From Burkholderia multivorans ATCC BAA-247 (GTDB lineage Bacteria > Pseudomonadota > Gammaproteobacteria > Burkholderiales > Burkholderiaceae), in contig NZ_CP009832.1 of the NCBI RefSeq assembly GCF_000959525.1, forward strand, positions 2,604,001-2,668,000: a DNA stretch of 64,000 bases, given 5' to 3'. The notes under the pieces are model-generated. The model saw only the letters and a list, made by a program, of their open reading frames with translations. It was not told the origin of the DNA and ran no database searches. Below are positions 3,764 through 63,117 of the stretch, piece after piece. The translations under genes were made by a program, and so were the position numbers. The first letter of the stretch is position 1, and each line of letters starts with the position of its first letter.

Positions 3764-3964
3764 GTGATTTCCCGCTTCTGGTGGAGGACGAAAACGGCTC
3801 CGATGTTAACACGCGGGCCGGGCCGGTTCGCGCGCTTCGCCGCCGTCGGATGCGGCGCGCGGCCGGGCCGCGAACGTTTTCGCGCGCCGCGTGTCGGCTC
3901 GCCTCGCGCGGCGCGGGTGCGTTACTCTTACGCCTTGTTCAGAATCCGATGAGGCACGAGGCCC

Positions 3965-4510
3965 ATGTTCCACCCGTCCGCCACCGCACGCGCACGCGCC
4001 GGCCTGCTTCGCCCGCTGCGCGCGCCGCTCTGCGCGTTGACCCTTGCCACGCTTCTCGCCGCCTGCGCGATGCCGACCCACCCCGATTCCGCCGCCCCCG
4101 CACCCGATCCGTACAACCCCGCCGCGGTCCAGCTGCTCGACGACACGAGTTGGGAACTGACGCGCTGGCAGAACGCGGACGGCACGCCGCGCGCGATTCC
4201 GCACGGCGACAACGGCGAGCCGATCAAGCTTCAGCTGTCGACGCAATCGGGCGTTCGGCATGCGAGCGGGTTTTCGGGCTGCAACCGCTACATGGGTCCG
4301 TACAACGTGAAGAACGGGCTGCTGAGCTTCGGGCCGCTCGCCGGTACGCGGATGGCCTGTCCGAACACGCTCGGCGGCCAGCTCGAACGCGCGTACCTCG
4401 ATGCGCTCGCGCACATCGCGAAGACCGGCGTGCTGATGCGCGCGCCGCAGCAGTTGCAGATCGTGACCGAAGCCGGCGACACGCTGACGTTCACGCGCCG
4501 CGGTCAATGA
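3965..4510 (+). CDS. META-domain lipoprotein (HslJ-like)
   Basis: A 181-residue protein with an N-terminal export signal ending in a lipobox-like LLAAC (Cys34) and a single META domain. The domain shows LDDTSWELTRW near its start, SGFSGCNRYMGPY in the middle, and GPLAGTRMACPN, the Cys pair and MAC pattern of META/HslJ proteins. Members are envelope proteins linked to heat shock, novobiocin resistance or adhesion in different species; the biochemical role is not known. It stands alone between purT (divergent) and ftsK (same strand, 179 bases downstream). The start is supported by the placement of the signal sequence; an extra Arg-rich stretch lies in the n-region. Confidence 0.8.
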   Translation: MFHPSATARARAGLLRPLRAPLCALTLATLLAACAMPTHPDSAAPAPDPYNPAAVQLLDDTSWELTRWQNADGTPRAIPHGDNGEPIKLQLSTQSGVRHASGFSGCNRYMGPYNVKNGLLSFGPLAGTRMACPNTLGGQLERAYLDALAHIAKTGVLMRAPQQLQIVTEAGDTLTFTRRGQ

Positions 4511-4689
4511 CGTCGCGCGCGGAGATGGCCGACCGGCCGCCTTTCTCCGCGCGCATCGTCCGCATGACCGGTCGCGCGGCGGATTCGCGCCGTGCTGTCC
4601 GGGTGTCCTGTTGGTCCTTGTCCGGGTCGTCGGCCGGTTAAACTCGGCGGGTCGCGCATCGCGCTCCCCGCCTTACTTCGTTTCAAAGC

Positions 4690-45456: not shown

Positions 45457-47778
45457 TCAGCCGAGCAGCGGACGCAGCTCGGTCACGACCTTCAGCTTCG
45501 TGTCGGGTGCGCGCCCCTTGCGCGCGCGCTTGCCGATATGCGGCGCGAGACCCGCATACGACAGCGTCTCGTCCTGCACCTTGCCGCCACGGCCCGTGCC
45601 GATCAGCACGACGCCGGCCGGATCGATCGCGAGCGCCTGCACGAGGGTTTCCTTGTCGTCGAGCGCCATCAGCGTCACGCCGCGTCCACCGCCCGACAGC
45701 GTCTTCATCTCGTCGATGCCGAACACCAGCAGCCGCCCGCCGCTCGACAGACACGCGACCTGCGTCGCGTTCGGCAGCACCGGCATCGGCGCGAGCGGCA
45801 CCGCGCCCGGATCGATCGTCATGAACGACTTGCCGGCCTTCACGCGGCTCACCATGTCGCCGACCTTCGCGATGAAGCCGAAGCCGTTGCTCGAGGCGAG
45901 CAGCAGCGGCTGGTCGGCCGACGCCGCGTAGTAATGCATCAGATGCGAGCCCGATTCGAGCTCGATCAGCGACGTGACCGGCACGCCGTCGCCGCGGCCG
46001 CCCGGCAGCACCGACACGTCGACCGAGTACACGCGGCCGCTGCTGCCCCACGCGATCAGCCGATCCGGCGTGCGGCACTGGAACGCCGCATACAGGCTGT
46101 CGCCGGCCTTGAACGAGAAGCCCGCCGGATCGAGCCCGTGGCCCTTCAGTGCGCGCACCCAGCCCTTCTGCGACACGACGACCGTCACCGGTTCGTCGAC
46201 GACCTTCGCCTCGAACGTCGCGCGCTTCTCCTGCTGGATCAGCGTGCGGCGATCGTCGCCGTACTGCTTCGCGTCGGCCTCGATCTCCTTGATCATCAGC
46301 CGCTTCATCGCGCTGTCGTTCGCGAGCAGTTCTTCCAGCTTCGCCTTCTCGTCGCGCAGCGATTCGAGCTCCTTCTCGATCTTGATCTTCTCGAGCCGCG
46401 CGAGCTGACGCAGCCGGATTTCGAGGATGTCCTCGGCCTGACGGTCCGTGAGTCCGAATGCACTCATCAGCGCGGCCTTCGGCTCGTCCGACTCGCGGAT
46501 GATGCGGATCACCTCGTCGAGATTCAGGAAGACGATCATCCGCCCTTCGAGGATGTGGATGCGATCGTCGACCTTGCCGAGACGATGGCGGCAGCGGCGC
46601 GTCATCGTCATCTGGCGGAACTTCACCCATTCGTCGAGGATAGTCAGCAGCCCCTTCTGGCCCGGCCGGCCGTCGGCGCCGATCATCACGAGGTTCAGCG
46701 TCGCGTTCGATTCGAGGCTCGTATGCGCGAGCAGCGAGTTGACGAATTCCGTCTGGTCGATCGTGCGCGACTTCGGCTCGAACACGAGCCGCACCGCCGC
46801 TTCCTTGCCCGATTCGTCGCGTACCGCGTCGAGCAGATCGAGCATCGCCTTCTTCGTGTTCAGCTGCTCGGGCGTCAGCGTCTTCTTGCCGAGCTTGAGC
46901 TTCGGGTTCGTCAGCTCCTCGATTTCCTCGAGCACCTTCTGGCACGACGTGTTCGGCGGCAGCTCGGTGACGACGAGCTGCCACTGGCCGCGCGCGAGAT
47001 CCTCGATCTTCCAGCGCGCGCGCACCTTCAGGCTGCCGCGGCCCGTCTCGTAGGCCGACGCGATTTCGGCGTCGCTCGAAATGATCTGCCCGCCGCCCGG
47101 GAAATCGGGGCCCGGGATCAGCGTCATGAGTTCTTCGTGCGTGAGCTTCGGGTTGCGGATCAGCGCGACCGCGGCGGCCGCGACCTCGCGCAGGTTGTGC
47201 GACGGAATTTCGGTCGCGAGACCGACCGCGATGCCCGACGCGCCGTTCAGCAGCACGAACGGCATGCGGCTCGGCAGCGTCTTCGGCTCCTCGAACGAAC
47301 CGTCGTAGTTCGGCATGAAGTCGACCGTGCCCTGGTCGATCTCGTCGAGCAGCAGCTTCGAGATCGGCGTGAGCCGCGCTTCGGTGTAGCGCATCGCCGC
47401 CGCCCCGTCGCCGTCGCGCGAGCCGAAGTTGCCCTGACCGTCGATCAGCGGGTAGCGCAGCGAGAAGTCCTGCGCGAGACGTACGAGCGCGTCGTACGCC
47501 GACTGATCGCCGTGCGGGTGGTACTTGCCGAGCACGTCGCCGACCACGCGCGCCGATTTCACCGGCTTCGCGTCCGGGCCGAGGCCCATTTCGTTCATCG
47601 CATAGAGAATGCGGCGCTGCACCGGCTTCTGGCCGTCGCAGACGTCGGGCAGCGCGCGGCTCTTCACGACGCTGACCGCATAGCTGAGATACGCCTGCTC
47701 CGCGTAATTGCCGAGCGTCAGCGCATCGGCCTCGGGCGAGTCGGACCCGGCAAAGAGATCGGAGGTGTTGTCGTCCAT
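45457..47778 (-). CDS. parC: DNA topoisomerase IV subunit A
   Basis: A 773-residue subunit that cuts and rejoins DNA for chromosome decatenation. The breakage-reunion domain shows [40 protein letters not shown] and the catalytic Tyr131 in [11 protein letters not shown] coiled region ([20 protein letters not shown]) follows, and the C-terminal domain has six-bladed pinwheel repeats, e.g. [20 protein letters not shown]. At the quinolone-binding positions the sequence is Asp91-Gln92-Ser93-Ala-Tyr-Asp96; E. coli ParC has Asp79-Ser80 and Glu84. It lies 67 bases after parE on the same strand and ends at an intrinsic terminator. Confidence 0.96.
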
Positions 47779-47845
47779 CTGAATTCCGTATTCGTAAGTG
47801 GCGTGAGGGCGCGCCGCGCATCATGCGCGGCCGCGCTCGGGGCGC

Positions 47846-49828
47846 TTAGATATCCGCTTCGACGTCGTTGCCCTTTTCCTCGAGCCAGCCGCGCCGTGCG
47901 GCCGCCTCGCCCTTGCCCATCAGCATCGTCATCCGCGCGACGGTCGTCTCGTAGTCGAGCTCGCCGAGCTTCACCGGCATCAGGCGGCGCGTATCGGGGT
48001 TCATCGTCGTGTCCCACAGCTGCTCCGCGCTCATTTCGCCGAGACCCTTGAAGCGGCTGATGCTCCATTGCGTTTCGCGCACGCCGTCCTTGCGCAGCTT
48101 GTCGAGGATCGCCTCCAGTTCGCCTTCGTCGAGCGCGTAGAGCTTCTGCGCGGGCTTCTTGCCGCGCGCCGGCGCGTCGACGCGGAACAGCGGCGGCCGC
48201 GCCACATACACGTGGCCGCGCTCGATCAGCTGCGGGAAATGCTTGAAGAACAGCGTGAGCAGCAGCACCTGGATGTGCGAGCCGTCGACGTCCGCGTCCG
48301 ACAGGATGCAGATCTTGCCGTAGCGCAGGTTCGACAGATCGACGCTGTCGTCCGGGCCGTGCGGATCGACGCCGATCGCGACCGAAATGTCGTGCACTTC
48401 GTTGTTCGCGAACAGACGGTCGCGCTCGGTTTCCCACGTGTTCAGCACCTTGCCGCGCAGCGGCAGGATCGCCTGGTATTCCTTGTCGCGGCCCATCTTC
48501 GCGGAACCGCCCGCCGAGTCGCCTTCGACGAGGAACAGCTCGTTGCGCGCGATGTCTTCCGTCTCGCAGTCGGTCAGCTTGCCCGGCAGCACCGCGACGC
48601 CCGAGCTCTTGCGCTTCTCGACCTTCTGGCCCGCGCGCGTGCGCGCCTGCGCCTGCTTGATCACGAGCTCCGCGAGCTTCTTGCCATGCTCGACGTGCTG
48701 GTTCAGCCACAGCTCGAGCGCCGGACGCGAGAACGACGACACGAGCTTCACCGCGTCGCGGCTGTTCAGCCGTTCCTTGATCTGCCCTTGGAACTGCGGA
48801 TCGAGCACCTTCGCGGACAGCACGAACGACACGCGCGCGAACACGTCTTCGGCGAGCAGCTTCACGCCCTTCGGCTGCAGGTTGTGCAGTTCGACGAAGC
48901 TCTTCACCGCCTGATAGAGACCGTCGCGCAGGCCGGATTCATGCGTGCCGCCGGCCGGCGTCGGGATCAGGTTGACGTACGACTCGCGCACCAGCGAGCC
49001 TTCCTCGCTCCAGGCGACGACCCACGACGCGCCCTCGCCTTCGGCGAACGTGTCGTCGCCCGAACGCGAATCGGCGAAGCGTTCGCCCTCGAACAGCGGA
49101 ATCAGCAGTTCGCTGCCGTTCATCTCGTCGAGCAGATAGCCGCGCAGGCCGTCCTCGTATTTCCAGCTCTGGCGCTCGCCGCTCTTCTCGTTGACGAGCA
49201 CGACCTCGACGCCCGGCAGCAGCACGGCTTTCGAGCGCAGCAGGCGCTGCAGTTCGCCGAGCGGCAGGTTTGCCGAGTCGAAGTACTTCGGATTCGGCCA
49301 TACGCGCACGCGCGTGCCCGACTTCTTCTCGCCGCGGCCGGCCGGCTGCGTGGACAGCGGCTTGACGACGTCGCCGTCGGCGAAACCGAGCTCCGCGATC
49401 TTGCCGTCGCGCCAGACGGTCACGTCGAGCCGCGTCGCGAGCGCGTTCGTCACCGACACGCCGACGCCATGCAAGCCGCCCGAGAACGTGTATGCGCCGC
49501 CCGCCGCCTTGTCGAACTTGCCGCCCGCATGCAGGCGCGTGAACACGATTTCGACGACCGGCACGCCTTCGTCGGGATGCAGGCCGAACGGAATGCCGCG
49601 GCCGTCGTCCTCGACGGAGACCGACTGGTCCGCGTGCAGCGTGACCGTGATCTGCTTGCCGTAACCGCCGAGCGCCTCGTCGGACGCGTTGTCGATGACT
49701 TCCTGGATGATGTGCAGCGGATTCTCGGTGCGGGTATACATGCCGGGCCGCTGCTTGACCGGCTCGAGACCCTTGAGCACCTTGATCGATGCTTCGCTAT
49801 AGGCCGCGCTGGGCTTCTTCGTTGACAT
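47846..49828 (-). CDS. parE: DNA topoisomerase IV subunit B
   Basis: A 660-residue ATPase subunit of topoisomerase IV. The GHKL ATPase domain has EVIDNASDEALGGYGKQITV, VEDDGRGIPFGLHPDEGVPV, GGLHGVGVSVTNALAT and VRVWPNPKYF. The TOPRIM domain shows LFLVEGDSAGGSAKMGRDKE, then ILPLRGKVLNTWETERDR and ILSDADVDGSHIQVLLLTLF, and the C-terminal QWSISRFKGLGEMSAEQLWD is the GyrB/ParE signature. Length and layout are typical of beta-proteobacterial ParE. Just upstream lie three DnaA-box-like sequences at 49859-49893. parC follows in the same transcript. Confidence 0.97.
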   Translation of the reverse strand: MSTKKPSAAYSEASIKVLKGLEPVKQRPGMYTRTENPLHIIQEVIDNASDEALGGYGKQITVTLHADQSVSVEDDGRGIPFGLHPDEGVPVVEIVFTRLHAGGKFDKAAGGAYTFSGGLHGVGVSVTNALATRLDVTVWRDGKIAELGFADGDVVKPLSTQPAGRGEKKSGTRVRVWPNPKYFDSANLPLGELQRLLRSKAVLLPGVEVVLVNEKSGERQSWKYEDGLRGYLLDEMNGSELLIPLFEGERFADSRSGDDTFAEGEGASWVVAWSEEGSLVRESYVNLIPTPAGGTHESGLRDGLYQAVKSFVELHNLQPKGVKLLAEDVFARVSFVLSAKVLDPQFQGQIKERLNSRDAVKLVSSFSRPALELWLNQHVEHGKKLAELVIKQAQARTRAGQKVEKRKSSGVAVLPGKLTDCETEDIARNELFLVEGDSAGGSAKMGRDKEYQAILPLRGKVLNTWETERDRLFANNEVHDISVAIGVDPHGPDDSVDLSNLRYGKICILSDADVDGSHIQVLLLTLFFKHFPQLIERGHVYVARPPLFRVDAPARGKKPAQKLYALDEGELEAILDKLRKDGVRETQWSISRFKGLGEMSAEQLWDTTMNPDTRRLMPVKLGELDYETTVARMTMLMGKGEAAARRGWLEEKGNDVEADI

Positions 49829-49858
49829 AGGCGCTGAATATCGTCATGCGTCCGGGCG

Positions 49859-49893
49859 TTGTCCACATCTCGTGTGGATAACGTCGTGGACAA
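49859..49893. promoter_or_regulatory. Cluster of DnaA-box-like sequences upstream of parE
   Basis: TTGTCCACA lies at 49859-49867 (+), TGTGGATAA, the perfect complement of the TTATCCACA box, at 49873-49881, and CGTGGACAA, complement of TTGTCCACG, at 49885-49893. The first and second together form an almost perfect inverted repeat. They sit 31-65 bases upstream of the parE ATG, where a promoter would be. DnaA is known to act as a transcription factor at such boxes; regulation here is inferred. Confidence 0.6.
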
Positions 49894-50094
49894 AACGTTG
49901 AGTTCCGTAAAAAAGCGAATCGAAACAACGGTGTGCTTGGACTGCTCCGAAAGCGGGCGCGCCGCATGCGCGGCGCGGCCCGGGACGCGCGGTATTTTAC
50001 TGGTTCCGCGTCGCGCGCCGTCGCGACAAGGCGCGCGTGGCGCCGGCACGCCGGCCGCGCGCGCGAGCCGCAGGCTGCCGACGCGCACCGCGCG

Positions 50095-52044
50095 TCATAC
50101 CGGCTTGCGTTTCGCTTCGAGCGTTTCCCAGCGTTCGAGCGCCGCGAGCAGTTCGTCGTCGATCGCCGCGAACCGCTCGGTGAGGCGCGCGCCTTCCTGC
50201 GGGTCCTTCGCGAAGATCGAACCGTCCTCGAGCTGCGCGCCGATCGTCTTTTGCTCGGCCTCGAGTGCGGCGATCTTCTCCGGCAGCGCATCGAGTTCGC
50301 GCTGCTCGTTGAACGACAGCTTCACCGTGCGCTGTGCGTTGCGGCCCGCCGCGCTTTTCGCCGGCTCGTCCTTGACCGGCGCCGCTTCCTTGACCGCGCG
50401 CTTCGCGGCTTCCTGCTGCGCGAGCTGCCCGGCGCGCTCGCTCTGGATCTGCCAGTCGGTGAAGCCGCCGACGTACTCGCGCCACTTGCCGTCGCCTTCG
50501 GATGCGATCACCGACGTCACGACGTTGTCGAGAAACGCGCGATCGTGGCTGACGAGCAGCACGGTGCCGTCGTAATCCGTCAGCAGTTCTTCGAGCAGTT
50601 CGAGCGTCGGGATGTCGAGGTCGTTGGTCGGTTCGTCGAGCACCAGCACGTTGGCCGGACGCGCGAACAGGCGCGCGAGCAGCAGGCGGTTGCGCTCGCC
50701 GCCCGACAGCGACTTGACCGGCGAGCGCGCGCGCTCCGGCGCGAACAGGAAGTCGCCGAGATAGCTCATCACGTGCTTGCGCACGCCGCCGATTTCGACC
50801 CACTCGCTGCCGGGGCTGATCGTATCCGCGAGGCTCTTTTCCTGATCGAGCTGCGCGCGCATCTGGTCGAAATACGCGACCTGCAGGTTCGTGCCCGTGC
50901 GCACCGTGCCTTCGTCCGGCTTCAGTTCGCCGAGGATCAGCTTGAGCAGCGTGGTTTTCCCCGCACCGTTGGGGCCGACGAAGCCGATCTTGTCGCCGCG
51001 CATCACCGTCGCCGTGAAGCGGTCGACGATCGTGCGGCCGCCGTAGCGCTTCGTCACGTCGGTCAGTTCCGCGACGATCTTGCCGGACTTCTCGCCCTGC
51101 GCGACGTCGAGCTTCACGTTGCCCTGCGCGTTGCGGCGCTCCGCACGCTCGCGGCGCATCTGCTCGAGCCGCGCGATGCGGCCGACGCTGCGCGTGCGAC
51201 GCGCCTCGACGCCCTTGCGGATCCACACTTCTTCCTGCGCGAGCAGCTTGTCGAATTTCTCGTTCTCGACGCGCTCCACTTCGAGCTGCTGCGCCTTGCG
51301 CGTCTGGTAAGCGGAGAAATTGCCCGGATACGACAGCAAGCGGCCGCGATCGAGTTCGACGATGCGCGTTGCGACGCGATCGAGGAACGCGCGATCGTGC
51401 GTGATGAACAGCAGGCCCGCGCGCTGCGCGACCAGCAGTTCTTCGAGCCAACGGATACCGTCGAAGTCGAGGTGGTTCGTCGGTTCGTCGAGCAGCAGCA
51501 CGTCCGGCTGCAGCACCAGCGCACGCGCGAGCGCGACGCGCTTCTGCATGCCGCCCGACAGCGCCTCGACGCGCGCGTCGCCGTCCTGCAGCCCGATCTG
51601 CGCGAGCGTCATCGACACGCGCGTGCGCCAGTTCCACGCGTCGTGCGCATCGAGCGACGACTGCAGCGCGTTCATCCGCGCGAGCAGCGCATCGTGCTCG
51701 GCGCCTTCCGGCGTCTCGGCAAGGCGATGCGCGATCGCGTCGTATTCGTCGAGCAGTTCGCGCGTGTGCGTGAGCCCCGACGCGACCGCGTCGAACACCG
51801 TCGCACCGGGCTCGAACTCCGGCTCCTGCGGCACGTAGACCGTCACGAGTTCCTGCTGCCGCGTGACGAGGCCGTCGTCGGGCTTCGCGAGCCCCGCGAC
51901 GATCTTCAGCAGCGACGACTTGCCCGCGCCGTTGCGGCCGATCAGACCGACGCGCTCGCCGGCTTCCAGCGAGAAATCCGCGTGATCGAGCAACGCGACG
52001 TGACCGAACGCGAGTTGCGCGCCGGTAATGGAATAAAGCGACAT
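50095..52044 (-). CDS. ABC-F family ATPase (Uup-like)
   Basis: A 649-residue soluble protein with two ABC ATPase cassettes. The first has GLIGRNGAGKSSLLK and LSGGMQKRVALARALVLQPD; the second has GFVGPNGAGKTTLLK and LSGGERNRLLLARLFARPAN. Both have LLLDEPTNHLD or VLDEPTNDLD. The cassettes are joined by a charged helical linker (VERVENEKFDKLLAQEEVWI and onward), and a C-terminal coiled coil (QRTVKLSFNEQRELDALPEK) follows, as in Uup. ABC-F proteins act on the ribosome or in DNA-related roles, not in transport. The start at 52044 fits the family; the frame runs upstream without homology. Confidence 0.9.
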   Translation of the reverse strand: MSLYSITGAQLAFGHVALLDHADFSLEAGERVGLIGRNGAGKSSLLKIVAGLAKPDDGLVTRQQELVTVYVPQEPEFEPGATVFDAVASGLTHTRELLDEYDAIAHRLAETPEGAEHDALLARMNALQSSLDAHDAWNWRTRVSMTLAQIGLQDGDARVEALSGGMQKRVALARALVLQPDVLLLDEPTNHLDFDGIRWLEELLVAQRAGLLFITHDRAFLDRVATRIVELDRGRLLSYPGNFSAYQTRKAQQLEVERVENEKFDKLLAQEEVWIRKGVEARRTRSVGRIARLEQMRRERAERRNAQGNVKLDVAQGEKSGKIVAELTDVTKRYGGRTIVDRFTATVMRGDKIGFVGPNGAGKTTLLKLILGELKPDEGTVRTGTNLQVAYFDQMRAQLDQEKSLADTISPGSEWVEIGGVRKHVMSYLGDFLFAPERARSPVKSLSGGERNRLLLARLFARPANVLVLDEPTNDLDIPTLELLEELLTDYDGTVLLVSHDRAFLDNVVTSVIASEGDGKWREYVGGFTDWQIQSERAGQLAQQEAAKRAVKEAAPVKDEPAKSAAGRNAQRTVKLSFNEQRELDALPEKIAALEAEQKTIGAQLEDGSIFAKDPQEGARLTERFAAIDDELLAALERWETLEAKRKPV

Positions 52045-52183
52045 GGGGAAACGGCGAAGAGAAATCGGAAGCGCCCATTGTACCGGTGGCGCGCGTCGCC
52101 GACCGTATGGCCGGATGGACGAGTGCCGCGGCGGAGCACGCCGCGGCGAAGCGGCGCGCATCGCGCGCGCCGCGCAATGGCGG

Positions 52184-52588
52184 TTACTTCACGTTGACGG
52201 TGATCGTCGAGCTCAATTCGGGACCGTACGAGCGGTGTGCGCCGTCGCCGAGCTGGAGTGTGAGCGTGTGCTGGCCGGGCGGCAGCGTGACGTCGGTTTC
52301 GGTCTGCGCCTTGCCGAAATGCAGCGAATGTTCGGTGGCGGGGATCACGTCGCCCTTCGGCACCGGCTTGCCGTCGATCAGCAGATGGTGATGGCCGGTG
52401 TCCGGCGTCATGTCGCCGGCCGGCTTCAGCGCCATTCCTTCGAGGCCGAACTTGACGTGCACGGGGTTCGACACCGTCGCGCCGTCCTTCGGCTCGACGA
52501 AGAACACGCGCGCTTCGGCGCGCGCGAGCGTCGATACGGCGAATGCCGCGACGCATACCGCACCCGCGATCCACTTTTTGTTGAGCAT
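52184..52588 (-). CDS. DUF4399 exported protein
   Basis: A 134-residue periplasmic protein of unknown role. A signal peptide (MLNKKWIAGAVCVAAFAVST, cleaved near ARA) precedes a DUF4399 domain, with VFFVEPKDGATVSNPVHVKF, then GMALKPAGDMTPDTGHHHLL and GDVIPATEHSLHFGKAQTET, and the C-terminal LTLQLGDGAHRSYGPELSST. The His cluster GHHHLL, with later His residues, could bind a metal, and some relatives occur near ATPase or copper genes, but no function is established. It is upstream of the ABC-F gene on the same strand, 139 bases away. Confidence 0.85.
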   Translation of the reverse strand: MLNKKWIAGAVCVAAFAVSTLARAEARVFFVEPKDGATVSNPVHVKFGLEGMALKPAGDMTPDTGHHHLLIDGKPVPKGDVIPATEHSLHFGKAQTETDVTLPPGQHTLTLQLGDGAHRSYGPELSSTITVNVK

Positions 52589-53118: not shown

Positions 53119-53184
53119 CTCCCCGTAGTTCAGGGGATGGAATGACAGGCACAAGGCTTGTCCGGCAAGGCTCACACCCCTTGC
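53119..53184 (+). pseudogene. tRNA-like remnant, tRNA-Arg-type 5' half with degenerate 3' half
   Basis: Read as a tRNA, bases 53119-53125 (CTCCCCG) would be the acceptor 5' strand, followed by TA and a D arm GTTC/GAAT. An anticodon stem ACAGG/CTTGT and a six-base T stem GCAAGG/CCTTGC (53165-53170, 53179-53184) also pair. The D arm (GTAGTTCAGGGGATGGAA) is close to that of tRNA-Arg. It cannot be a working tRNA: the anticodon loop lacks T33, the T loop lacks TTCRA, and no 3' acceptor strand pairs with CTCCCCG. It lies exactly where host sequence gives way to prophage. A decayed integration target is the likely explanation. Confidence 0.5.
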
Positions 53185-53233: not shown

Positions 53234-53413
53234 TGCTTCTGAGCGTCACTCCTGCCACCGGTCGCAAAGCAACTTGCACTGCCTGATGATGTAACAGTAC
53301 CGGGGCCTTATCAGACAAAACGCATTGAACGCCCATCGAGATCGGGAGAATCGCGCCGAGATTCGTCTATGCTTGTTAAACTTGGTTACCGTAAAAAATA
53401 GAATATCTACTAT

Positions 53414-55834
53414 ATGCGCGGCACCGTTGATATCAAGATTCGACCGACCAAGTTGGCCTTCTTAGTCGATCCCAATAGCGCATCGCAGGTGCGCGAAGCC
53501 ATCCGTCTTGCCAGTAGCCTTTGGGGAGGGGTCTACTTTCCGATCATCCCGCTCTTCAAGCGGATGCCAGCGAGCTGGCGTGAGAAGCCCTTGTCGCCTC
53601 CCGGCTCACGCGATGTGGTGCGCGGCTATATCGATGCATTCGATCCGGACGTCCTCGTTCAGTTTTCTCAAAGCCTTCCGTCTTATGTCGCCGACGTACG
53701 CCTGCCGGTTGTTAAGCCTTCCGAAGTGTGGGAGCGAGTGGGTCCACTTGTTCGACCTACCTACGGCATCGGTGCATTCACACTGTTCGATGCCATATAC
53801 AAGGAATTCTTCAAATACAAGGCAAAGTATCCCGTCAGAGTCGTGGCACCGGTTATTCCGAATAAACTCGGATTATTTTGGGCAAGCGTATATGGAGAGT
53901 ATGCCGACGATACTCTTTCGGAGATAATCAGGCACTACGCAGAACCCTTGGACATCGAACAACCACCAGTTACGACGGAATCGTTCCCGACACTGACAGG
54001 ACCAGACGTTCTTTTCCCAAGAAGAATTACGGGATGGGACCTTTTCCCGCACGGCAATACGAACTATGGACGACACGCATGCATCTTTTTCATGGATGCG
54101 AGCAACGTTGAGGATATCGTCGACTACTGGAACCTTCGAGCTACTGGTAGAAACGTACTTCCACTACCAAAGCAGTTTTTACAAGAAGAGCCATTCAGGC
54201 GTGTGGCGGTTGAGTTTCTCGTCGCGGAACGCCGGCAATGGCCACATGATCCTAAACAATTCGATGTCGCAACATTCATTCGAAGTCGCCACTCAACGAT
54301 GGAAGAAATGCAGGCGTATGCGGCCACGCTCGAGTTTCCGACCGCAGCCGCACACACCGTAACCGGGCCATATTTTTCGTTGCAACATTGGTATCCACGT
54401 ATCTGGGACGAGTGGGCTCGTGGCAAAGACGGTGGCGTGGTTGACGTCTATGCAGAGGGAGAGCACTCAATCGACATAGCAAGCCCTTCCGACCTTGAAA
54501 TGCGAATCAAGGCTTTGGTGCCCGAATTTGTACCGCCGGATTGGTTCCATAGCGAAGGGCTGTGCGCGAACGAATTCGACTTGCGTCTATATGGCGCAGA
54601 GGAGCATCTCGCGGAGGTCTATCCGAAAATCACGGGGGACCATTTAGCTAGCGCGATTTCCGGTATGAGCGGCCTCTCAGGTCAGTGGCGCATTGGACGA
54701 CACGGCTTGGTGAAGCTTGTGCAACACTCGTTCATCGAGCCGCACACTGTACCGTCATCTGAAGCGATCATCTTTGCTTGGTTAGAAGATCTTGGGTGGA
54801 AGGCCGAATTGTCACCGCCCGGCATCCTCGCCAAGCAGATTTTCAAACGACTTCGTGGGAACTCAAGATTGCTCGCTGACAAGTCCGTCCTGGGACTGCT
54901 AGAACACATGAATGGCGGGGCCGTCAGCAAGAATGGAATGCCGATTGACGCGAGCCGGTTAACCGCGGCACGTGAGGTTTCTGTCGGCGAGGTCAAGCGT
55001 CGACTAAAGAATCCCACGTTGTACGACACGTTTCTCCAGAGTGGCGTCTTCAAGCTTGGCCTGCGAACACAATGCCCTACCTGCCAACGCAATACCTGGT
55101 TTGCCATGTCAGCACTAAATGAGTCGCTAGAGTGTCCGAAGTGCCTGACTTACTTCCCTGCCGCCGGCAATGTCGACCAATCATCCGGCGGATGGTACTA
55201 CCGGACCGCCGGGCCGTTCAGCGTCCCAAACTATGCAGATGGTGCACACGCCGTATTGCTGACCATTGCTGCCCTTAGTGACCGTATGCATACAGGGCTA
55301 CGGACGACATCGGTTCCTAGCTTCACAGCTACGTCGCCGGGTAAGTTTAATATGGAAGCGGACTTTGCCATGTTCTGGAGGGATTCGGTTTATGGTGAAC
55401 AGAGCGAAGGTTTGCTGTTCGGCGAATGCAAAACATACGGCAAATTCGAGGCTAAGGACATCGACAGAATGCGCATGTTGGCCGAGACTTTCCCGGGCGC
55501 CATCCTGGTCTTCAGTACTTTGAGAGAAGCTCTGACCGCGAAGGAAATCGTATCAATTGGCAAGCTTGCGAAGTTTGGGAGAAAACACTGGAAAGCAGAG
55601 CGCTCCATCAATCCTGTTCTGATTCTCACTGGTACTGAACTATTGCATTGGAAGGGCCCCCCGTATTGTTGGACTGAAGCGCTGCGCGCGAGATTTCCCA
55701 ATGCTTACGGATTACTCAGCCTCTGTGATGCGACTCAGCAACTGTACCTGAACCTGCCGCCGCTGGATGAAGAATGGCAGATGCGCTGGGCGCGGCAACG
55801 GGCACGCCGGAAAACCCTCCGGAGGGCTGAGTAG
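53414..55834 (+). CDS. Large unrecognised protein with zinc ribbon and PD-(D/E)xK nuclease signature (candidate phage-defence cargo)
   Basis: An 806-residue protein that I cannot assign to a known family. Residues 1-550 are globular with no motif I recognise; the first 90 include VDPNSASQVREAIRLASSLW and FDPDVLVQFSQSLPSYVADV. A zinc ribbon follows (CPTC at 554-557, CPKC at 574-577). The C-terminal part has a restriction-type nuclease signature: Glu648-Ala-Asp650, then Gly-Glu671-Cys-Lys673 in LLFGECKTYGKF, followed by an alpha helix and GAILVFS, as in PD-(D/E)xK folds. Its base composition is much lower in GC than its flanks (e.g. 30 of 60 in 53881-53940). No ribosome site precedes the ATG, so it may be leaderless. 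Cargo of a P2-like prophage; defence function is inferred. Confidence 0.85.
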   Translation: MRGTVDIKIRPTKLAFLVDPNSASQVREAIRLASSLWGGVYFPIIPLFKRMPASWREKPLSPPGSRDVVRGYIDAFDPDVLVQFSQSLPSYVADVRLPVVKPSEVWERVGPLVRPTYGIGAFTLFDAIYKEFFKYKAKYPVRVVAPVIPNKLGLFWASVYGEYADDTLSEIIRHYAEPLDIEQPPVTTESFPTLTGPDVLFPRRITGWDLFPHGNTNYGRHACIFFMDASNVEDIVDYWNLRATGRNVLPLPKQFLQEEPFRRVAVEFLVAERRQWPHDPKQFDVATFIRSRHSTMEEMQAYAATLEFPTAAAHTVTGPYFSLQHWYPRIWDEWARGKDGGVVDVYAEGEHSIDIASPSDLEMRIKALVPEFVPPDWFHSEGLCANEFDLRLYGAEEHLAEVYPKITGDHLASAISGMSGLSGQWRIGRHGLVKLVQHSFIEPHTVPSSEAIIFAWLEDLGWKAELSPPGILAKQIFKRLRGNSRLLADKSVLGLLEHMNGGAVSKNGMPIDASRLTAAREVSVGEVKRRLKNPTLYDTFLQSGVFKLGLRTQCPTCQRNTWFAMSALNESLECPKCLTYFPAAGNVDQSSGGWYYRTAGPFSVPNYADGAHAVLLTIAALSDRMHTGLRTTSVPSFTATSPGKFNMEADFAMFWRDSVYGEQSEGLLFGECKTYGKFEAKDIDRMRMLAETFPGAILVFSTLREALTAKEIVSIGKLAKFGRKHWKAERSINPVLILTGTELLHWKGPPYCWTEALRARFPNAYGLLSLCDATQQLYLNLPPLDEEWQMRWARQRARRKTLRRAE

Positions 55835-55839
55835 ACAGA

Positions 55840-56133
55840 TTGGTGCTCCGTTACGCGGACCGCATCCCGGAACACCATGTCGTGGTTAACGTCGAGCTCG
55901 TGCTACGCACAGAGTATCCGCCTCGCGGCGTTCGTCCGCCGTACCTGTGCGTCGTCCACTTCGATCCGGGACGCTCGACCGACTTGCCGCTCACATGGAA
56001 ACGCAATATCGAGGAACTCAAATTCGATTCCAACACCACGTACGTCGAATGCGGGTACGACATTTTCGACTCGTTCAGCGACGCGAAGATGAACTTGACG
56101 GCGCGCGGTTTCTACATCGAGCCGATCAACTAG
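55840..56133 (+). CDS. Unrecognised 97-residue protein after the nuclease-like gene
   Basis: A 97-residue protein starting with TTG at 55840, or GTG at 55843, only 5 bases after the stop of the 806-residue gene. The sequence looks like a folded protein (VVVNVELVLRTEYPP, LTWKRNIEELKFDSNTTYVE, MNLTARGFYIEPIN), but I recognise no domain. Its GC content (42 of 60 in 55921-55980) is like the phage and chromosome, unlike its upstream neighbour. So it may be an original phage gene rather than part of the same acquired unit. A 7-base hairpin (56226-56243) without a T-run lies between it and the convergent dam gene. Confidence 0.6.
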   Translation: MVLRYADRIPEHHVVVNVELVLRTEYPPRGVRPPYLCVVHFDPGRSTDLPLTWKRNIEELKFDSNTTYVECGYDIFDSFSDAKMNLTARGFYIEPIN

Positions 56134-56256: not shown

Positions 56257-57048
56257 TCAGAACAGCCCGACAGGCTGCGCCGCATCGTCCCAACTGAAGA
56301 TGATCAGCTCGTTGCGCTCGACGCCCTTGTGCCCACCGGCAACCGTATACTGGAGCGGCACCGTCTCGATGTGAAAACCTTCAAACACGCGCCGGATGTC
56401 GGGATGGTCGTTCAGGCTGACAATTGCTCGCCCCTTAATTGTGCGAAGACGATCCGCAATCTTTTCGTATTCCTCGAAGGCAAACTCGACGCCGTAACCG
56501 CGTGTTTCGTAGTACGGCGGATCGAGATAAAAAAGCGTGTGCGGACGGTCGTATCGTTCCATGCATTCGCCCCAGTGCATCCGCTCGATGTACGCACCCG
56601 CGAGGCGCAAGTGCGCGGCTGACAGCTCCTCCTCCAAACGAAGCAGGTTCAATCCGGGCGGCGCAGTCGTCGCGGTACCAAACGTCTGACCGTGAACAAT
56701 GCCCCCAAAGCAACTTTTCTGCAGGTAGTAGAACCTCGCCGCACGCTGAATATCGGTGAGCGTTTCCGGGACGGTCAACTTCAGCCACTCGAACACCTGT
56801 CGGCTCGTCAGCGCCCACTTGAACTGGCGCACGAACTCTTCGAGGTGGTGCTGAACGACGCGATACAGATTCACCAGCTCGCCGTTCACGTCGTTGATCA
56901 CCTCGACCTTCGCCGGCGGCCGAAGGAAATACAGTGCCGCCCCGCCGGCGAACACCTCCACGTAGCAGTCATGCGCCGGAAAGCGCGGAATAAGATGGTC
57001 TGCCAGTCGGCGCTTGCCGCCGATCCACGGAATAATCGGATTTGCCAT
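56257..57048 (-). CDS. dam: Phage DNA adenine methylase (D12 class, Dam-like)
   Basis: A 263-residue adenine-N6 methyltransferase. It has the SAM-binding PIIPWIGGKRRLADHLIPRF and YVEVFAGGAALYFL, the catalytic DPPY in LFYLDPPYYETRGYG, and RNELIIFSW at the C-terminus. This is the order of the D12 (alpha) class that includes Dam. Phage-borne copies protect phage DNA from GATC-type restriction or change host methylation. No cognate restriction enzyme is next to it. The neighbouring nuclease-like gene is on the opposite strand and convergent. The start at 57048 fits the family. Confidence 0.92.
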   Translation of the reverse strand: MANPIIPWIGGKRRLADHLIPRFPAHDCYVEVFAGGAALYFLRPPAKVEVINDVNGELVNLYRVVQHHLEEFVRQFKWALTSRQVFEWLKLTVPETLTDIQRAARFYYLQKSCFGGIVHGQTFGTATTAPPGLNLLRLEEELSAAHLRLAGAYIERMHWGECMERYDRPHTLFYLDPPYYETRGYGVEFAFEEYEKIADRLRTIKGRAIVSLNDHPDIRRVFEGFHIETVPLQYTVAGGHKGVERNELIIFSWDDAAQPVGLF

Positions 57049-58562: not shown

Positions 58563-59615
58563 TTACTTCGGCGGCGACGGTACAACCAGATCGATCTTCT
58601 TCGTCGGCTTCTTGCGATGGCCGACCTTCGCCTTGCCCTTGTTGCCGGCGTTCAGCTCCACCGACGTCTCCCAACCATTGCCGGCATACCGGTGTCGTAC
58701 GGAATCGACCAGAAAGTCGCCGTCCGCCTCCTGTTTGAAACCCGACAGCTTCACGGTCTTCTCGGCCGATATGTCCGTACGCCCCTTCATTCGCAGCACG
58801 CTGCGCGCGGTGTGCCGGTTCAGCTTCTCAAGGCGCGACTTCGCGGCGCTCTTCGCGGCCTCGGGACTGGCGAACGCATGGCGCTCGGTGTGCACGGCGG
58901 CGGCGCCGGGCGAAGCGTCGGGATTCGGGATCGTCAGGTCAATCTTCTTCCCCGTTTTCTTGTCGTGCACCTTCGTCCGTACAGCAACGAAGCTCGCACG
59001 ATCCGGGAACGAGATCTCGTAGTCCGTTAGATCGTCCGGTGTCAGGGTGATAGACGGCAACGGCTTGCCGCTGGCGCTCTTGCCGCCGCCGATCGGCGCG
59101 ACGATCAGCTTGCCCGCCTTCACCGTCGCCGTCGCGCCGTACTGCCGCGCGATACGCGTAATGAAATGCAGGTCGCTCTCTCCGAACTGATCTGCACGCG
59201 GCACGGCCGCGTCGACCGAACATGCGGCGGCCCATTTGTTGCGCCGCGCGACGTCGCCGACGATGTCGGCGAGCTTCACGTTCGTCCAGCTGCCGTTGCG
59301 CTGCGTCTTCGACGTCGCGCGCAGGTTGGCCGGCCGACCGCGAATGATGAGCGTCGCCGGCGGCCCACGCAACACGATCTCGTCCACCGCATACTCGCCG
59401 AGCATCGTCAGCCCTTGCCCTTCCCATCCGAGCGAGATCTTCAACGTCGCGCCCTTCGGCGGAAACCGCACCTTGCCGTCACGGTCGTCCAGCTCGATCT
59501 CGCACTCGTCCGCCTCAAGGCCCGGCTTGTCGGTCGTCTGAATCTGCAGTATGCGGTCCTGAATCACGCGCGTGATGTCATCGCCGTTCGCGACGATCTG
59601 AAAAATTGCCCGCAT
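58563..59615 (-). CDS. Phage late control protein D (gpD, tail protein)
   Basis: A 350-residue P2 gpD-type tail protein. It has TDKPGLEADECEIELDDRDG near the N-terminus, then the long beta-rich part with WEGQGLTMLGEYAVDEIVLR and RGRPANLRATSKTQRNGSW, and QFGESDLHFITRIARQYGAT, which is the gp27/VgrG-like hub fold. gpD forms the hub of the phage tail. It is the last tail gene, downstream of gpX, and a terminator lies after it. Length is as in P2 (387) but somewhat shorter. Confidence 0.93.
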   Translation of the reverse strand: MRAIFQIVANGDDITRVIQDRILQIQTTDKPGLEADECEIELDDRDGKVRFPPKGATLKISLGWEGQGLTMLGEYAVDEIVLRGPPATLIIRGRPANLRATSKTQRNGSWTNVKLADIVGDVARRNKWAAACSVDAAVPRADQFGESDLHFITRIARQYGATATVKAGKLIVAPIGGGKSASGKPLPSITLTPDDLTDYEISFPDRASFVAVRTKVHDKKTGKKIDLTIPNPDASPGAAAVHTERHAFASPEAAKSAAKSRLEKLNRHTARSVLRMKGRTDISAEKTVKLSGFKQEADGDFLVDSVRHRYAGNGWETSVELNAGNKGKAKVGHRKKPTKKIDLVVPSPPK

Positions 59616-60699: not shown

Positions 60700-63117
60700 T
60701 TACAGATGCGGTGCATCGAACATCGCCGACCGGTTGCTCTTGTCGAGCGTCTCGGTCATCGTCCGCTGAATCAGCGGGTTGATGCGGGCCAGCAGCTTGT
60801 CCGCGATCTCGGCGTCCGAACTGCCCTCGACCTTGATGTGGAACACCGGAGCGAACGAGTTTTGTTGCTCGACCTTGAAGGGACGCGACTGCGGCGAATC
60901 CGCGCCCGCGGCGGCCTTCGCAGCGGCCTTCGCTGCGTCACTGTCGTCCGCCTTCGGGCCGGTCGCCCATCGCGCGATCGCGCCAAGTAACTTCCCGCCG
61001 GCGAACGTACCGACTGCACCGCCAAGCACACCGCCGATCGCAACGCCGATCGGGCCGCCGAGCATGCCGATACCCGCACCGAGCTTCGCTCCAACGACGC
61101 CACCGGCGAGCGAGCCGCCGATGCTGGCGTACCCTTCCGCCTTCCTCGCGATCGGCTGGTCGCTGCGTGCGACCGCGTATGCGTCCTTCGCCGCGAACGC
61201 GATCTTCAGGACGCTGCCGGCGATCGCGAGCTTCCCCGCGTACGGCGCAATGCGGCCGGCGACCGTACGAAACGCGCCGATGACGCGCCCGAGTCGACCG
61301 CTCGACGCGCGACCAGCTGTCGAGCCGCCGCCGGCAAGGTCGCCGAGCAGATCGCCCGCTGCGCCGGCGATGCCGCCACCGAGACCGCCGCCCGGCAGGT
61401 TCACGACGAATACGCGTTGCACGCCCCCGGCCGCACCGCTCAACGCGTCGAGCGCCTTGCCAAGCCGTCCGCCGGCAGTGCCGCCACCAGGTGCCCCACC
61501 ACCGCCACGTCGAGCCATCCACCCGCCGCGCAGAATGTCGAACACGCCGCGCCCCATGTTCCACGCAGCACGTGCGCCACGAACGGCAATCGCCGTGCCG
61601 ATGACGCCGACGACCGCTGCGGTCGCTCCGGGGGCCGCATCGGACGCGTGCTGCACCGTTTCGCCCGCACGCTTCGCGACCTTGCCGGCGAGATCCGTCA
61701 CCGGCCGCAGCGCATCGCCGATACTGCGCATCGCGTCGTCCCACTGCTGGACGACCTCGCTCCAGATCTGCTTCGACGTTGCCCGCCGATCGGCCAGATC
61801 CTTGTCGATCTCACCGCTCGCATCTGCCGCGTTGCGCTTGAGCTTCTGATACAGATCGGCGTTCTGCATGTAGGCGGTGAGCGCTACCTTGACCTGCATG
61901 TCGTTGAACAGGTCGCCGGTCTTCATCGTGTCCTCGAAGGCCCGCATCTGCGCCTGACGCTTCGCGGGATCCAGCTCGCTGTTGAGCTGCTTCGCCACCG
62001 CTGCCAGCTGCGCCGCCTTCTTCGGATCGACACGCTCGATGTAGGCCCGCGCGAGAACAAACGACGCCTCCAGCGGCGACCATCCCTTGTTGATCGCCTC
62101 CTTCATCTTCGCTTCGTAGTCGACGCCGGCCTTTTTGTAGTTGCGCTCGGTCTCCCCTGAACCGATCTTCGAAAACCAGTTCTTCAGGTTGTTCGCTGCC
62201 TCGTCTGCGTTGCCGGCCGTCTTCATCTGGACCTGCAGCATTGCGCCGAGCTGCGTCACCGAATCCTTCCCCGTGATGCCGAGCTTCTTCATTTCGGCCA
62301 ACAGCACCGGGAACCAACGCGCCATGTCGACGGATTCGAACGAGCCCTCCTTGCCGAGATACGCGATCGCCTCAAGCGCCTTCATCATCGCCTTGGGATC
62401 CTTGATGTCAGCGTTCTGCTGCAGCGCCTGAATCATCTGCGCAGTCTCGACGCTGGACGCCCCCTGACCTACCGAGAATTTCGCGACGGCCGGGCCGAAG
62501 TTCAGCGCCCGGTCGACGTCCATCCCGGCCGCAACCATCTGGTTGACCGCGTCGGCCAGCTCGTTGCGCCCCATGCCGTTCGACAATGCGTCACGGCGGA
62601 TGCGCTCGGACATCGCGCGCTCCTGCTCCGTGCGCGCGATGCCGGCCTTGATCGCGATGTCGCGAATGATCGCCTGATACTGCGCCGACACCGTGGTCGG
62701 CACCGCGACGGCCGCACCGAGCTTCATGGTGTCGCGCGCCGCATCACGCATGCCGTCGCGGCCGACAGCCAGACGTTCGTGCCCGGCCGCTTTCAGTTCG
62801 AGCCCGCGAACGGTGCGCCCGAGTCTCGCGTACGCGCGATCGAGGCGATCGACCTCGAACCCGGCGTCACGCAGCGCACGAACATTGCTGTCCAGCTTGC
62901 GCCGGATTCCGTCCGCGGCGCTGTCGCCCGCCAGATGCAGCCGGCGAAACTCCTCTTGCAGCTTGATCGTCTCGCCAATCTGCCGCTGCCACATGCCGCG
63001 CTCGCTCGCAGCCTTGCGCAGCCCGACGATCTTCGAGTTCGTGTCGGCAAACGCCTTGCCGAGCGTTGCCGACACGGCACCGCCGATGACGATGCCAAGT
63101 GCAATATCGCGTGCCAT
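60700..63117 (-). CDS. Phage tail tape measure protein (gpT)
   Basis: An 805-residue protein that sets tail length. Landmarks are the N-terminal LGKAFADTNSKIVGLRKAAS and long alpha-helical stretches, the conserved VSAQYQAIIRDIAIKAGIAR, then the Gly/Ala-rich hydrophobic segment (GGSLAGGVVGAKLGAGIGML and GPIGVAIGGVLGGAVGTFAG) in the C-terminal third. This segment is a typical tape-measure membrane part. It begins 12 bases after the E' stop. The 805-residue length, short of the 1000 or more residues in many phages, would predict a moderately long tail. Confidence 0.93.
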   Translation of the reverse strand: MARDIALGIVIGGAVSATLGKAFADTNSKIVGLRKAASERGMWQRQIGETIKLQEEFRRLHLAGDSAADGIRRKLDSNVRALRDAGFEVDRLDRAYARLGRTVRGLELKAAGHERLAVGRDGMRDAARDTMKLGAAVAVPTTVSAQYQAIIRDIAIKAGIARTEQERAMSERIRRDALSNGMGRNELADAVNQMVAAGMDVDRALNFGPAVAKFSVGQGASSVETAQMIQALQQNADIKDPKAMMKALEAIAYLGKEGSFESVDMARWFPVLLAEMKKLGITGKDSVTQLGAMLQVQMKTAGNADEAANNLKNWFSKIGSGETERNYKKAGVDYEAKMKEAINKGWSPLEASFVLARAYIERVDPKKAAQLAAVAKQLNSELDPAKRQAQMRAFEDTMKTGDLFNDMQVKVALTAYMQNADLYQKLKRNAADASGEIDKDLADRRATSKQIWSEVVQQWDDAMRSIGDALRPVTDLAGKVAKRAGETVQHASDAAPGATAAVVGVIGTAIAVRGARAAWNMGRGVFDILRGGWMARRGGGGAPGGGTAGGRLGKALDALSGAAGGVQRVFVVNLPGGGLGGGIAGAAGDLLGDLAGGGSTAGRASSGRLGRVIGAFRTVAGRIAPYAGKLAIAGSVLKIAFAAKDAYAVARSDQPIARKAEGYASIGGSLAGGVVGAKLGAGIGMLGGPIGVAIGGVLGGAVGTFAGGKLLGAIARWATGPKADDSDAAKAAAKAAAGADSPQSRPFKVEQQNSFAPVFHIKVEGSSDAEIADKLLARINPLIQRTMTETLDKSNRSAMFDAPHL

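What the first reader, a model, noticed from the sequence alone, without database searches (positions are those of the whole stretch)
53414..55834. Unrecognised 806-residue zinc-ribbon/PD-(D/E)xK protein as prophage cargo: candidate new defence protein
The sequence shows CPTC (554-557) and CPKC (574-577), then Asp650 and Glu671-x-Lys673 in a restriction-nuclease arrangement, all preceded by about 550 residues with no motif I recognise. The gene is far lower in GC than its flanks and stands on the strand opposite to the phage tail genes, next to the attachment side. P2-like prophages are known to carry anti-phage genes at such ends. A single large protein with its own sensing part and a nuclease would fit a one-gene defence system that cuts DNA or RNA on infection. 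The function is inference.
Basis: partly seen in the sequence, partly recalled or inferred. Interest (0 to 1): 0.85.

Follow-up and report, generated by a model that had tools for sequence, protein, structure and literature searches.

The report
Unnamed prophage nuclease, likely phage defence
A gene carried by a dormant virus in a bacterial chromosome belongs to a widespread but unnamed protein family that looks like a DNA- or RNA-cutting enzyme with its own unknown sensor part, and it probably protects the cell against other viruses.

Summary
Window 53414-55834 (+) is an intact 806-codon gene at the attachment end of a ~39.7 kb prophage in tRNA-Arg(CCT). It has no convincing match in Pfam, PADLOC, PHROGs or NCBIfam. 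In 76 non-redundant homologues with 14 phylum labels, all four cysteines, Asp650, Glu671 and Lys673 are invariant, as are Asp234, Trp239 and Asn240 in the unrecognised N-terminal part. The nuclease fold is not shown: structure prediction was off, and comparison with Mrr and NERD nucleases was not significant.

Context fits defence cargo. The nearest relative (82%) shares with the window's prophage only this gene and, 22 kb off, a dam-like stretch. Sister prophages carry Septu or a type IIG restriction enzyme on the same side of dam. One homologue lies in the published P2 defence hotspot, some near type I restriction genes, one near AbiJ and IetAS. No gene recurs at more than 6 loci.

Best reading: a one-gene anti-phage nuclease. 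Function is inferred.

The parts
53414..55834 (+). 806-aa gene: N-terminal conserved region, zinc ribbon, PD-(D/E)xK-type nuclease region
   Evidence: homologues
53373..55833 (+). extent of DNA shared with the G402 copy (83% nt); in the 40 kb compared there is otherwise only a dam-like stretch 22 kb away: a one-gene cassette
53426..54313 (+). N-terminal conserved region (residues 5-300) with R10-P11, W37-G-G39, P43, D79, D234, W239-N240, R242; unknown function, putative sensor
   Evidence: no credible solved-structure relative by sequence
55073..55144 (+). zinc ribbon C554-x2-C557-x16-C574-x2-C577
   Evidence: 4 Cys invariant in 76 of 76; spacing fixed in 75 of 76
55355..55432 (+). nuclease signature E648-x-D650 ... 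E671-x-K673
   Evidence: D650, E671, K673 in 76 of 76; E648 in 74 of 76, Asp in 2
53119..53142 (+). left prophage junction: 5' remnant of tRNA-Arg(CCT); the intact gene is at window-extended 92840-92914 next to an integrase-like gene
   Evidence: empty site in G422 (L135)
55840..56133 (+). 3' part of a small phage gene that has a longer N-terminus in G407 (L133); the shared phage DNA begins 10 bases after the stop of the 806-aa gene
56257..57048 (-). phage DNA adenine methylase (D12 class), widespread in genomes of the genus; bounds the variable slot
58563..59615 (-). P2-type baseplate hub gene gpD
   Evidence: Pfam Phage_GPD
60700..63117 (-). phage tape-measure-like tail gene
   Evidence: Pfam PhageMin_Tail

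Best explanation
The gene encodes a single-protein anti-phage (or anti-mobile-element) nuclease that the prophage carries as cargo. Shown: one conserved architecture (N-terminal region with WGG and D-x4-WN-x-R motifs, four-cysteine zinc ribbon, E-x-D...E-x-K nuclease signature); strong purifying selection; mobility as one gene; presence in prophage cargo slots and, at some loci, near known defence genes. Inferred: the C-terminal region folds as a PD-(D/E)xK nuclease and cuts nucleic acid with a divalent metal; the zinc ribbon helps bind it; the N-terminal 530 residues recognise an infection signal (phage DNA state, phage protein or invading-element feature) and release the nuclease, giving either direct destruction of invading DNA or abortive infection. 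No Walker A motif is found, so an ATP-driven trigger is unlikely.
For: D650, E671, K673 and four Cys in 76 of 76 homologues. dN/dS 0.16-0.19 against the G402 copy, with residues 541-600 and 601-750 best kept (90% and 88% identity). DNA shared with G402 is the gene, plus a dam-like stretch 22 kb away. Slot: Septu PtuA/PtuB (5.7e-163, 2.5e-106) in a second prophage-like region of the same genome and a type IIG enzyme (1.4e-256) in G380, on the side of dam where the window has its attachment site. L016: gene between a P2-type replication gene and portal Q, the hotspot of PMC9122126 and PMC9519451. Mu-like prophage L015; P2-like L101 beside gpV. Bradyrhizobium plasmid: YhaV gene just upstream; AbiJ, IetA/IetS within 9 kb. 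Type I R-M genes near L064 and others; Orf5/HEC-06 gene upstream in L019. Photobacterium plasmid: DUF4238 gene next to it; a DUF4238 protein gave T7 resistance in PMC9122126. No neighbour recurs at more than 6 of 75 loci within 8 kb (genes of 90 aa or more) or at more than 5 of 76 within 3 kb (frames of 35 aa or more). Walker A in 0 of 79.
Against: No activity data. Fold not tested. Profile comparison with Mrr_cat and NERD is not significant (prob 0.3% and 2.2%): the catalytic columns line up, but the Mrr score (12.9) is barely above the best decoy (12.3), and only NERD (18.5) clears its decoys (at most 11.9) and the family's own N-terminal part (13.0). The PADLOC neighbour scan is a weak contrast: 190 models hit by 148 near proteins against 87 by 147 far ones, models redundant, members not counted. 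Of 10 chosen neighbours, 5 matched no PADLOC model and 2 only weakly, and two of the three strong ones I had picked as likely R-M genes. Close relatives L018 and L043 have metabolic-looking neighbours (94, by eye). In sister prophages the same side of dam also holds PAAR modules, not defence. L013 has Thr at the K673 column.
Confidence: 0.58

Rival explanations
1. It is a stand-alone restriction-type DNase (type IV-like: it cuts DNA by modification state; or a type II enzyme whose own DNA is protected by the phage or host methylase), so the N-terminal part is a DNA-reading rather than an infection-sensing module.
For: Nuclease signature and zinc ribbon; dam methylase two genes away; methylase-type genes near some homologues: HsdM-like at 6 loci and another DNA-methylase-like cluster at 3 of 75 (the latter named by eye).
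Against: dam is not tied to this gene: the DNA around it has some match in 51 of 65 genus genomes while the nuclease is in 2 of 65. No methylase is constant beside homologues.
Confidence: 0.2
2. It serves the mobile elements themselves: a nuclease for recombination, transposition or replication (TnsA-like), not defence.
For: Often on prophages or plasmids in the cases read; serine-recombinase-like genes near the G402 and L045 copies (by eye).
Against: No recurrent transposase or recombinase partner; the elements are unrelated (P2-like, Mu-like, plasmids); the gene is absent from 63 of 65 genus genomes, most of which have DNA related to the neighbouring phage genes.
Confidence: 0.1
3. It is a toxin acting on host nucleic acid, held in check by an antitoxin or by the prophage (addiction or abortive infection without sensing).
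For: YhaV/PrlF toxin-antitoxin pair directly upstream in Bradyrhizobium; nuclease signature.
Against: That pair looks complete by itself, and no gene of 35 aa or more recurs beside homologues at more than 5 of 76 loci; shorter or RNA antitoxins were not tested.
Confidence: 0.08

Closest known systems
PD-(D/E)xK nucleases of the Mrr_cat (PF04471) and NERD (PF08378) families
   Same: hhalign lines up D and E-x-K with the corresponding columns of both families, and for Mrr also a downstream strand ending in EL
   Different: Similarity not statistically significant; D-to-E spacing 18-24 residues in 70 of 76; preceded by a zinc ribbon and a 530-residue conserved region; no Pfam match of that kind
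P2-type prophage hotspot defence genes (Rousset 2022 PMC9122126; Vassallo 2022 PMC9519451; passages read)
   Same: Same kind of place: the L016 copy lies between gpA-type and gpQ genes
   Different: The window protein matches no PADLOC model and 60 members gave two single weak hits; the window copy sits at the attachment end, not at the gpA-gpQ locus
Septu (PtuA/PtuB) and type IIG restriction enzymes
   Same: Occupy the same side of the dam gene in sister prophages
   Different: No sequence relation reported by the PADLOC scan of the window protein; PtuA is an ATPase, this protein has no Walker A
Photobacterium plasmid protein WP_341509620.1 and Bradyrhizobium plasmid protein WP_231145838.1 (hypothetical proteins)
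   Same: Full-length homologues, 26% and 22% identity, key residues kept
   Different: Other replicons; annotated only as hypothetical

Membership tests
PD-(D/E)xK nuclease superfamily | Conserved D and E-x-K catalytic residues | tested here: met
   76 of 76 homologues; exception L013 outside that set, Thr for Lys
PD-(D/E)xK nuclease superfamily | alpha-beta restriction-nuclease core fold | not testable with these tools
PD-(D/E)xK nuclease superfamily | profile similarity to known member families | tested here: inconclusive
   hhalign against Mrr_cat and NERD: right columns aligned, prob 0.3% and 2.2%; no nuclease among the PDB hits at E<=10
Zinc ribbon | two CxxC knuckles with fixed spacing | tested here: met
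   weak zinc-ribbon profile hits in Pfam
Known defence systems of PADLOC 2.0.0 | match to a system protein model | tested here: not met
   0 families for the window protein at E<=10; 2 single weak hits (PDC-M33C 5e-4, PD-Lambda-5_A 2e-3) in 60 members
Prophage anti-phage hotspot cargo | interchangeable cargo at a fixed place that also holds known defence genes | tested here: met
   2 of the 8 sister loci read were shown to hold known defence genes, and proteins of only 4 of the 8 were scanned with PADLOC
Prophage anti-phage hotspot cargo | protection against phage | not testable with these tools
   needs plating assays
Type II restriction-modification | cognate methyltransferase travelling with the nuclease | tested here: not met
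   methylase-type genes lie near a minority of homologues (HsdM-like 6 of 75, another cluster 3 of 75) and none is constant; dam is not tied to this gene
Type IV restriction | cleavage dependent on modified DNA | not testable with these tools
   biochemistry needed
Toxin-antitoxin system | adjacent antitoxin gene | tested here: inconclusive
   no recurrent frame of 35 aa or more at more than 5 of 76 loci; shorter or RNA antitoxins not tested
ATP-driven (STAND, AAA) defence nucleases | Walker A motif G-x4-GK[ST] | tested here: not met
   0 of 79 sequences

The most novel reading that the evidence does not exclude
The N-terminal 530 residues are a new, ATP-independent infection-sensing domain (signature RP...LWGGxxNPI ... 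D-x4-WN-x-R) fused to a zinc-ribbon nuclease, so that one protein senses and cuts. The same unit defends bacteria of many phyla, perhaps including the small-genome Patescibacteria, and moves alone between P2-like and Mu-like prophages, plasmids and defence islands.
Probability: 0.42. Interest if true: 0.78.

Novelty: new variant of a known kind. Interest (0 to 1): 0.62.

Why it matters
A family with relatives under 14 phylum labels, key residues invariant in 76 of 76, and no convincing match in Pfam, NCBIfam, PHROGs or PADLOC is a ready-made target: its catalytic residues and its putative sensor residues are now listed and can be mutated. If it defends, it adds a one-gene system to the prophage arsenal and a sensing domain without a recognised counterpart.

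Tried and rejected
Internal repeat in the N-terminal region (it looked as if WGG and WN segments were copies): hhalign found none. Adjacent dam methylase as cognate partner: rejected. Solved structures: no relative for the whole protein; for the C-terminal profile 20 chains at E 0.11-10, none a nuclease by name, mostly zinc-binding proteins; for the N-terminal profile only an arsenical pump ATPase at E 0.48. PD-Lambda-5_A as relative: one weak hit in 60 members; none in the own genome, but that search rang in no control genome either, so it shows nothing. First genome contigs and viral-contig scans with the single protein found nothing. PADLOC near/far tally proved too coarse to count loci; it used 148 of 219 near and 147 of 241 far proteins (one of the 148 far proteins drawn was left out by oversight when I made A6). 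My first neighbour set chose genes by longest frame and at least 90 aa and missed real genes, for example YhaV/PrlF in L005; one search repeated the partner test with every frame of 35 aa or more. Rfam: one match at E 0.97, far below its gathering score. Promoter scan: no + strand promoter-like site; one found in all against 1.7 expected. Architectures in which the C-terminal module stands without the N-terminal part: none seen. In one search the complete frames L149 and L150, and L151 (cut by its contig end), matched both parts, while L146 and L147 gave only the zinc-ribbon segment and L148 nothing; those three were not followed up. Literature: searches (PMC open library only) listed no paper that by title or abstract describes this family; I saw search listings, and passages of PMC9519451, PMC9122126 and PMC13092281, not whole texts or supplements.

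Full report
Observation. The frame 53414-55834 on + encodes 806 residues without interruption. G+C falls to 0.53-0.56 across the gene, against 0.65-0.69 to the left; to the right it stays at 0.57-0.58 over the small gene and dam before rising to 0.63-0.66. GC3 of the gene is 0.59, while the nearest conserved chromosomal genes (45457-52588) have 0.86-0.91. Shuffling the protein shows that the D...ExK pattern by itself is expected (71% of 20,000 shuffles), while the four-cysteine pattern is not (0.005%).

Place. The window continues into a prophage. A 5' remnant of a tRNA-Arg gene lies at 53119-53142; the intact tRNA-Arg(CCT) lies at window-extended 92840-92914, with an integrase-like gene at 91526-92665 (named from its sequence and place). 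In genome G422 of the same genus the two flanks meet in one intact tRNA-Arg(CCT), the empty site. The element is thus about 39.7 kb and the gene is its first gene from that junction, on + while dam, gpD and tape-measure-like genes run on -. The tail genes tested are P2-type or general; head and replication genes were not classed.

Family libraries. The protein has no family at E<=10 in PADLOC or PHROGs, and only zinc-ribbon noise in Pfam (Anti-TRAP 0.15) and NCBIfam (YnfU 0.05). Scanning 60 members one by one gave much the same: in Pfam 23 families at E<=0.1, mostly zinc ribbons or hits in a single member; two single weak PADLOC hits; and in NCBIfam two weak YnfU hits, one IS3 transposase and one LapB hit.

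Relatives. None in 50,697 phage records; two plasmid records, Photobacterium (26%) and Bradyrhizobium. Including the own genome: 2 of 65 genomes of the genus, 2 of 398 of the family sample, 2 of 369 of the class sample (the other being the broken G034 copy), and 5 of 398 of the phylum sample with a 4-row profile. Pattern scans with the growing alignment found 90 relatives in genome contigs (80 kept) and 4 prophage contigs in viral contigs (a repeat with A4 gave the same four). From these I took frames of at least 690 aa with E<1e-25: 85 hits, 77 after removing loci fetched twice and the untrimmed G402 frame, 79 with the window and the trimmed G402 copy, 76 after removing three near-copies. C554, C557, C574, C577, D234, W239, N240, G610, D650, E671 and K673 are the same in 76 of 76; E648 in 74 (Asp in 2). 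W37 and G39 are kept in 75 with one gap, G38 in 74. The spacing between the cysteine pairs is fixed in 75 of 76. Against: the distant relative L013 (outside the 76) has threonine at the K673 column.

One architecture. Distant members found with the C-terminal profile alone (9 of 299 genomes, own included) matched the N-terminal and whole-protein profiles too where a long frame could be read (L149, L150, L151). Weak hits L146 and L147 gave the zinc-ribbon segment only, L148 nothing in a frame of 150 aa; they were not pursued.

Nuclease identity. The order E-x-D, then E-x-K, then a D...P helix and LT-x2-EL follows the PD-(D/E)xK scheme (this reading of the scheme is recalled). hhalign of residues 596-770 (76-row set) against Mrr_cat and NERD sets built here (11 usable sequences of 24 and of 18 loci) placed D650 and E671-x-K673 on the D and (Q/E)-x-K columns of both. 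Scores were 12.9 (Mrr; reversed and five shuffled profiles at most 12.3) and 18.5 (NERD; at most 11.9, the family's N-terminal part 13.0), against 9.7 for an HNH set (10 of 12 loci; decoys up to 11.7). Probabilities were 0.3% and 2.2%, so this is agreement, not proof. No credible PDB relative by sequence. Structure prediction could not be run.

Selection and mobility. Against the G402 copy (82% aa, 83% nt) dN/dS is 0.16 (NG86) or 0.19 (YN00); residues 541-600 and 601-750 are best kept, at 90% and 88%. In 40 kb around that copy, DNA similarity to the window's prophage region is confined to 53373-55833, apart from a dam-like stretch at 72% about 22 kb away. On the other side, DNA shared with G407 resumes at 55844 within a small gene whose form in G407 has a longer N-terminus. 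I infer that the gene arrived as a unit of one gene and displaced the start of that small gene. A maximum-likelihood tree of the 76 rows needs 17 changes of phylum label (13 is the least possible, shuffled mean 27.6; 12 rows bear no label): clustering with some mixing, for which transfer is one explanation and binning error another.

The slot. Of eight sister loci read, I scanned six proteins from four of them with PADLOC. Two carry known systems on the side of dam where the window has its attachment site: Septu PtuA/PtuB in a second prophage-like region of the same genome (L138, 7-9 kb from dam) and an MmeI-like type IIG enzyme in G380 (L139, 3 kb from dam). The one protein scanned from each of L131 and L133, and a third from L138, had no match. 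PAAR-type modules occupy the space in others (L136 tested; L137 by sequence). Phage KS9 has a TIGR02391 gene on the same side of dam. I did not map the ends of the L138 and L139 prophages.

Other contexts. L016 lies between a P2-type replication gene and the portal gene, the defence hotspot of E. coli P2-like phages (PMC9122126 and PMC9519451, passages read). Its neighbour of 831 aa looks by eye like a SIR2-type protein; the PDB search showed only TPR-like repeats. L101 is P2-like, next to gpV. L015 is a Mu-like prophage. The Bradyrhizobium copy follows a PrlF/YhaV pair directly and lies within 9 kb of IetA/IetS and an AbiJ-type gene. The Photobacterium copy has a DUF4238 gene beside it; in PMC9122126 a DUF4238 protein gave T7 resistance. 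Type I R-M genes recur: HsdM-like at 6 loci, an HsdS-like gene at 4 and an HsdR-like gene at 4 of 75 within 8 kb, with PADLOC confirmation for HsdM and HsdR of L064 and four Specificity_I matches among the 148 near proteins. A further DNA-methylase-like cluster stands at 3 loci (by eye). L019 has an Orf5/HEC-06 gene upstream. No gene is present at more than 6 of 75 loci (864 neighbours of 90 aa or more). The repeat with every frame of 35 aa or more within 3 kb (3939 frames at 76 loci) gave at most 5 loci. Against: several loci, among them the close relatives L018 and L043, sit among metabolic-looking genes; of ten neighbours chosen, five had no PADLOC match and two only weak ones; and the PADLOC tally of near and far neighbours (190 against 87 models) cannot be turned into a count of loci.

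Mechanism. The most likely reading is a one-gene defence protein: recognition by the N-terminal region, binding helped by the zinc ribbon, cleavage by the PD-(D/E)xK site, no ATP (no Walker A in 79 sequences). Shown: conservation, intactness, mobility, context. Inferred: fold, substrate, trigger, and whether the cell survives.

Novelty. Prophage-carried nucleases that defend are a known kind. This family has no convincing match in the four libraries, and the papers that my searches listed do not name it in title or abstract; its N-terminal region has no recognised relative. Newer defence catalogues, bioRxiv and supplements were not searched. The genus is taken to be Burkholderia because of phage relatives; the species is not known to me.

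Noticed in passing
L138 (G000:C3:2311000-2324000), 153-2305: A second prophage-like region of the same genome, sharing the dam gene, carries a Septu PtuA/PtuB pair, with a PAAR-module-like set of genes between it and dam.
   Followed up: partly
L139 (G380:C2), 3200-6271: MmeI-like type IIG restriction-modification enzyme on the same side of the dam gene in a sister prophage.
   Followed up: partly
window 55840-56133: Small phage gene without its 5' part beside the cassette; a longer form stands in G407 (L133) and a protein that looks related stands near the G402 copy. Function unknown, no Pfam match.
   Followed up: partly
L002/L003/L009 (G034): A broken relative with 8 in-frame stops in one matched piece: the family also decays in place.
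   Followed up: no
L027, L032, L095: Contigs labelled Dojkabacteria, Falkowbacteria and Patescibacteria encode full-length 790-883 aa relatives, large for such small genomes; binning error not excluded.
   Followed up: no
L020-L024, L026, L028, L036, L056, L058, L061, L064, L096: 13 of the 76 non-redundant homologues come from contigs labelled Candidatus Poribacteria, three of them near type I R-M genes.
   Followed up: no
L022, L023, L024, L028, L096: At five Poribacteria loci a frame related to a roughly 1020-1630 aa protein (helicase-like by eye) lies within 3 kb of the homologue.
   Followed up: no
L016, 4748-7240: 831-aa neighbour in a P2 hotspot: SIR2-like start by eye and TPR-like repeats (PDB hits); possibly another defence gene.
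   Followed up: partly
L005, 11964-14273: 770-aa unannotated Bradyrhizobium plasmid protein downstream of the homologue, without a PADLOC match, in a defence-rich stretch.
   Followed up: no
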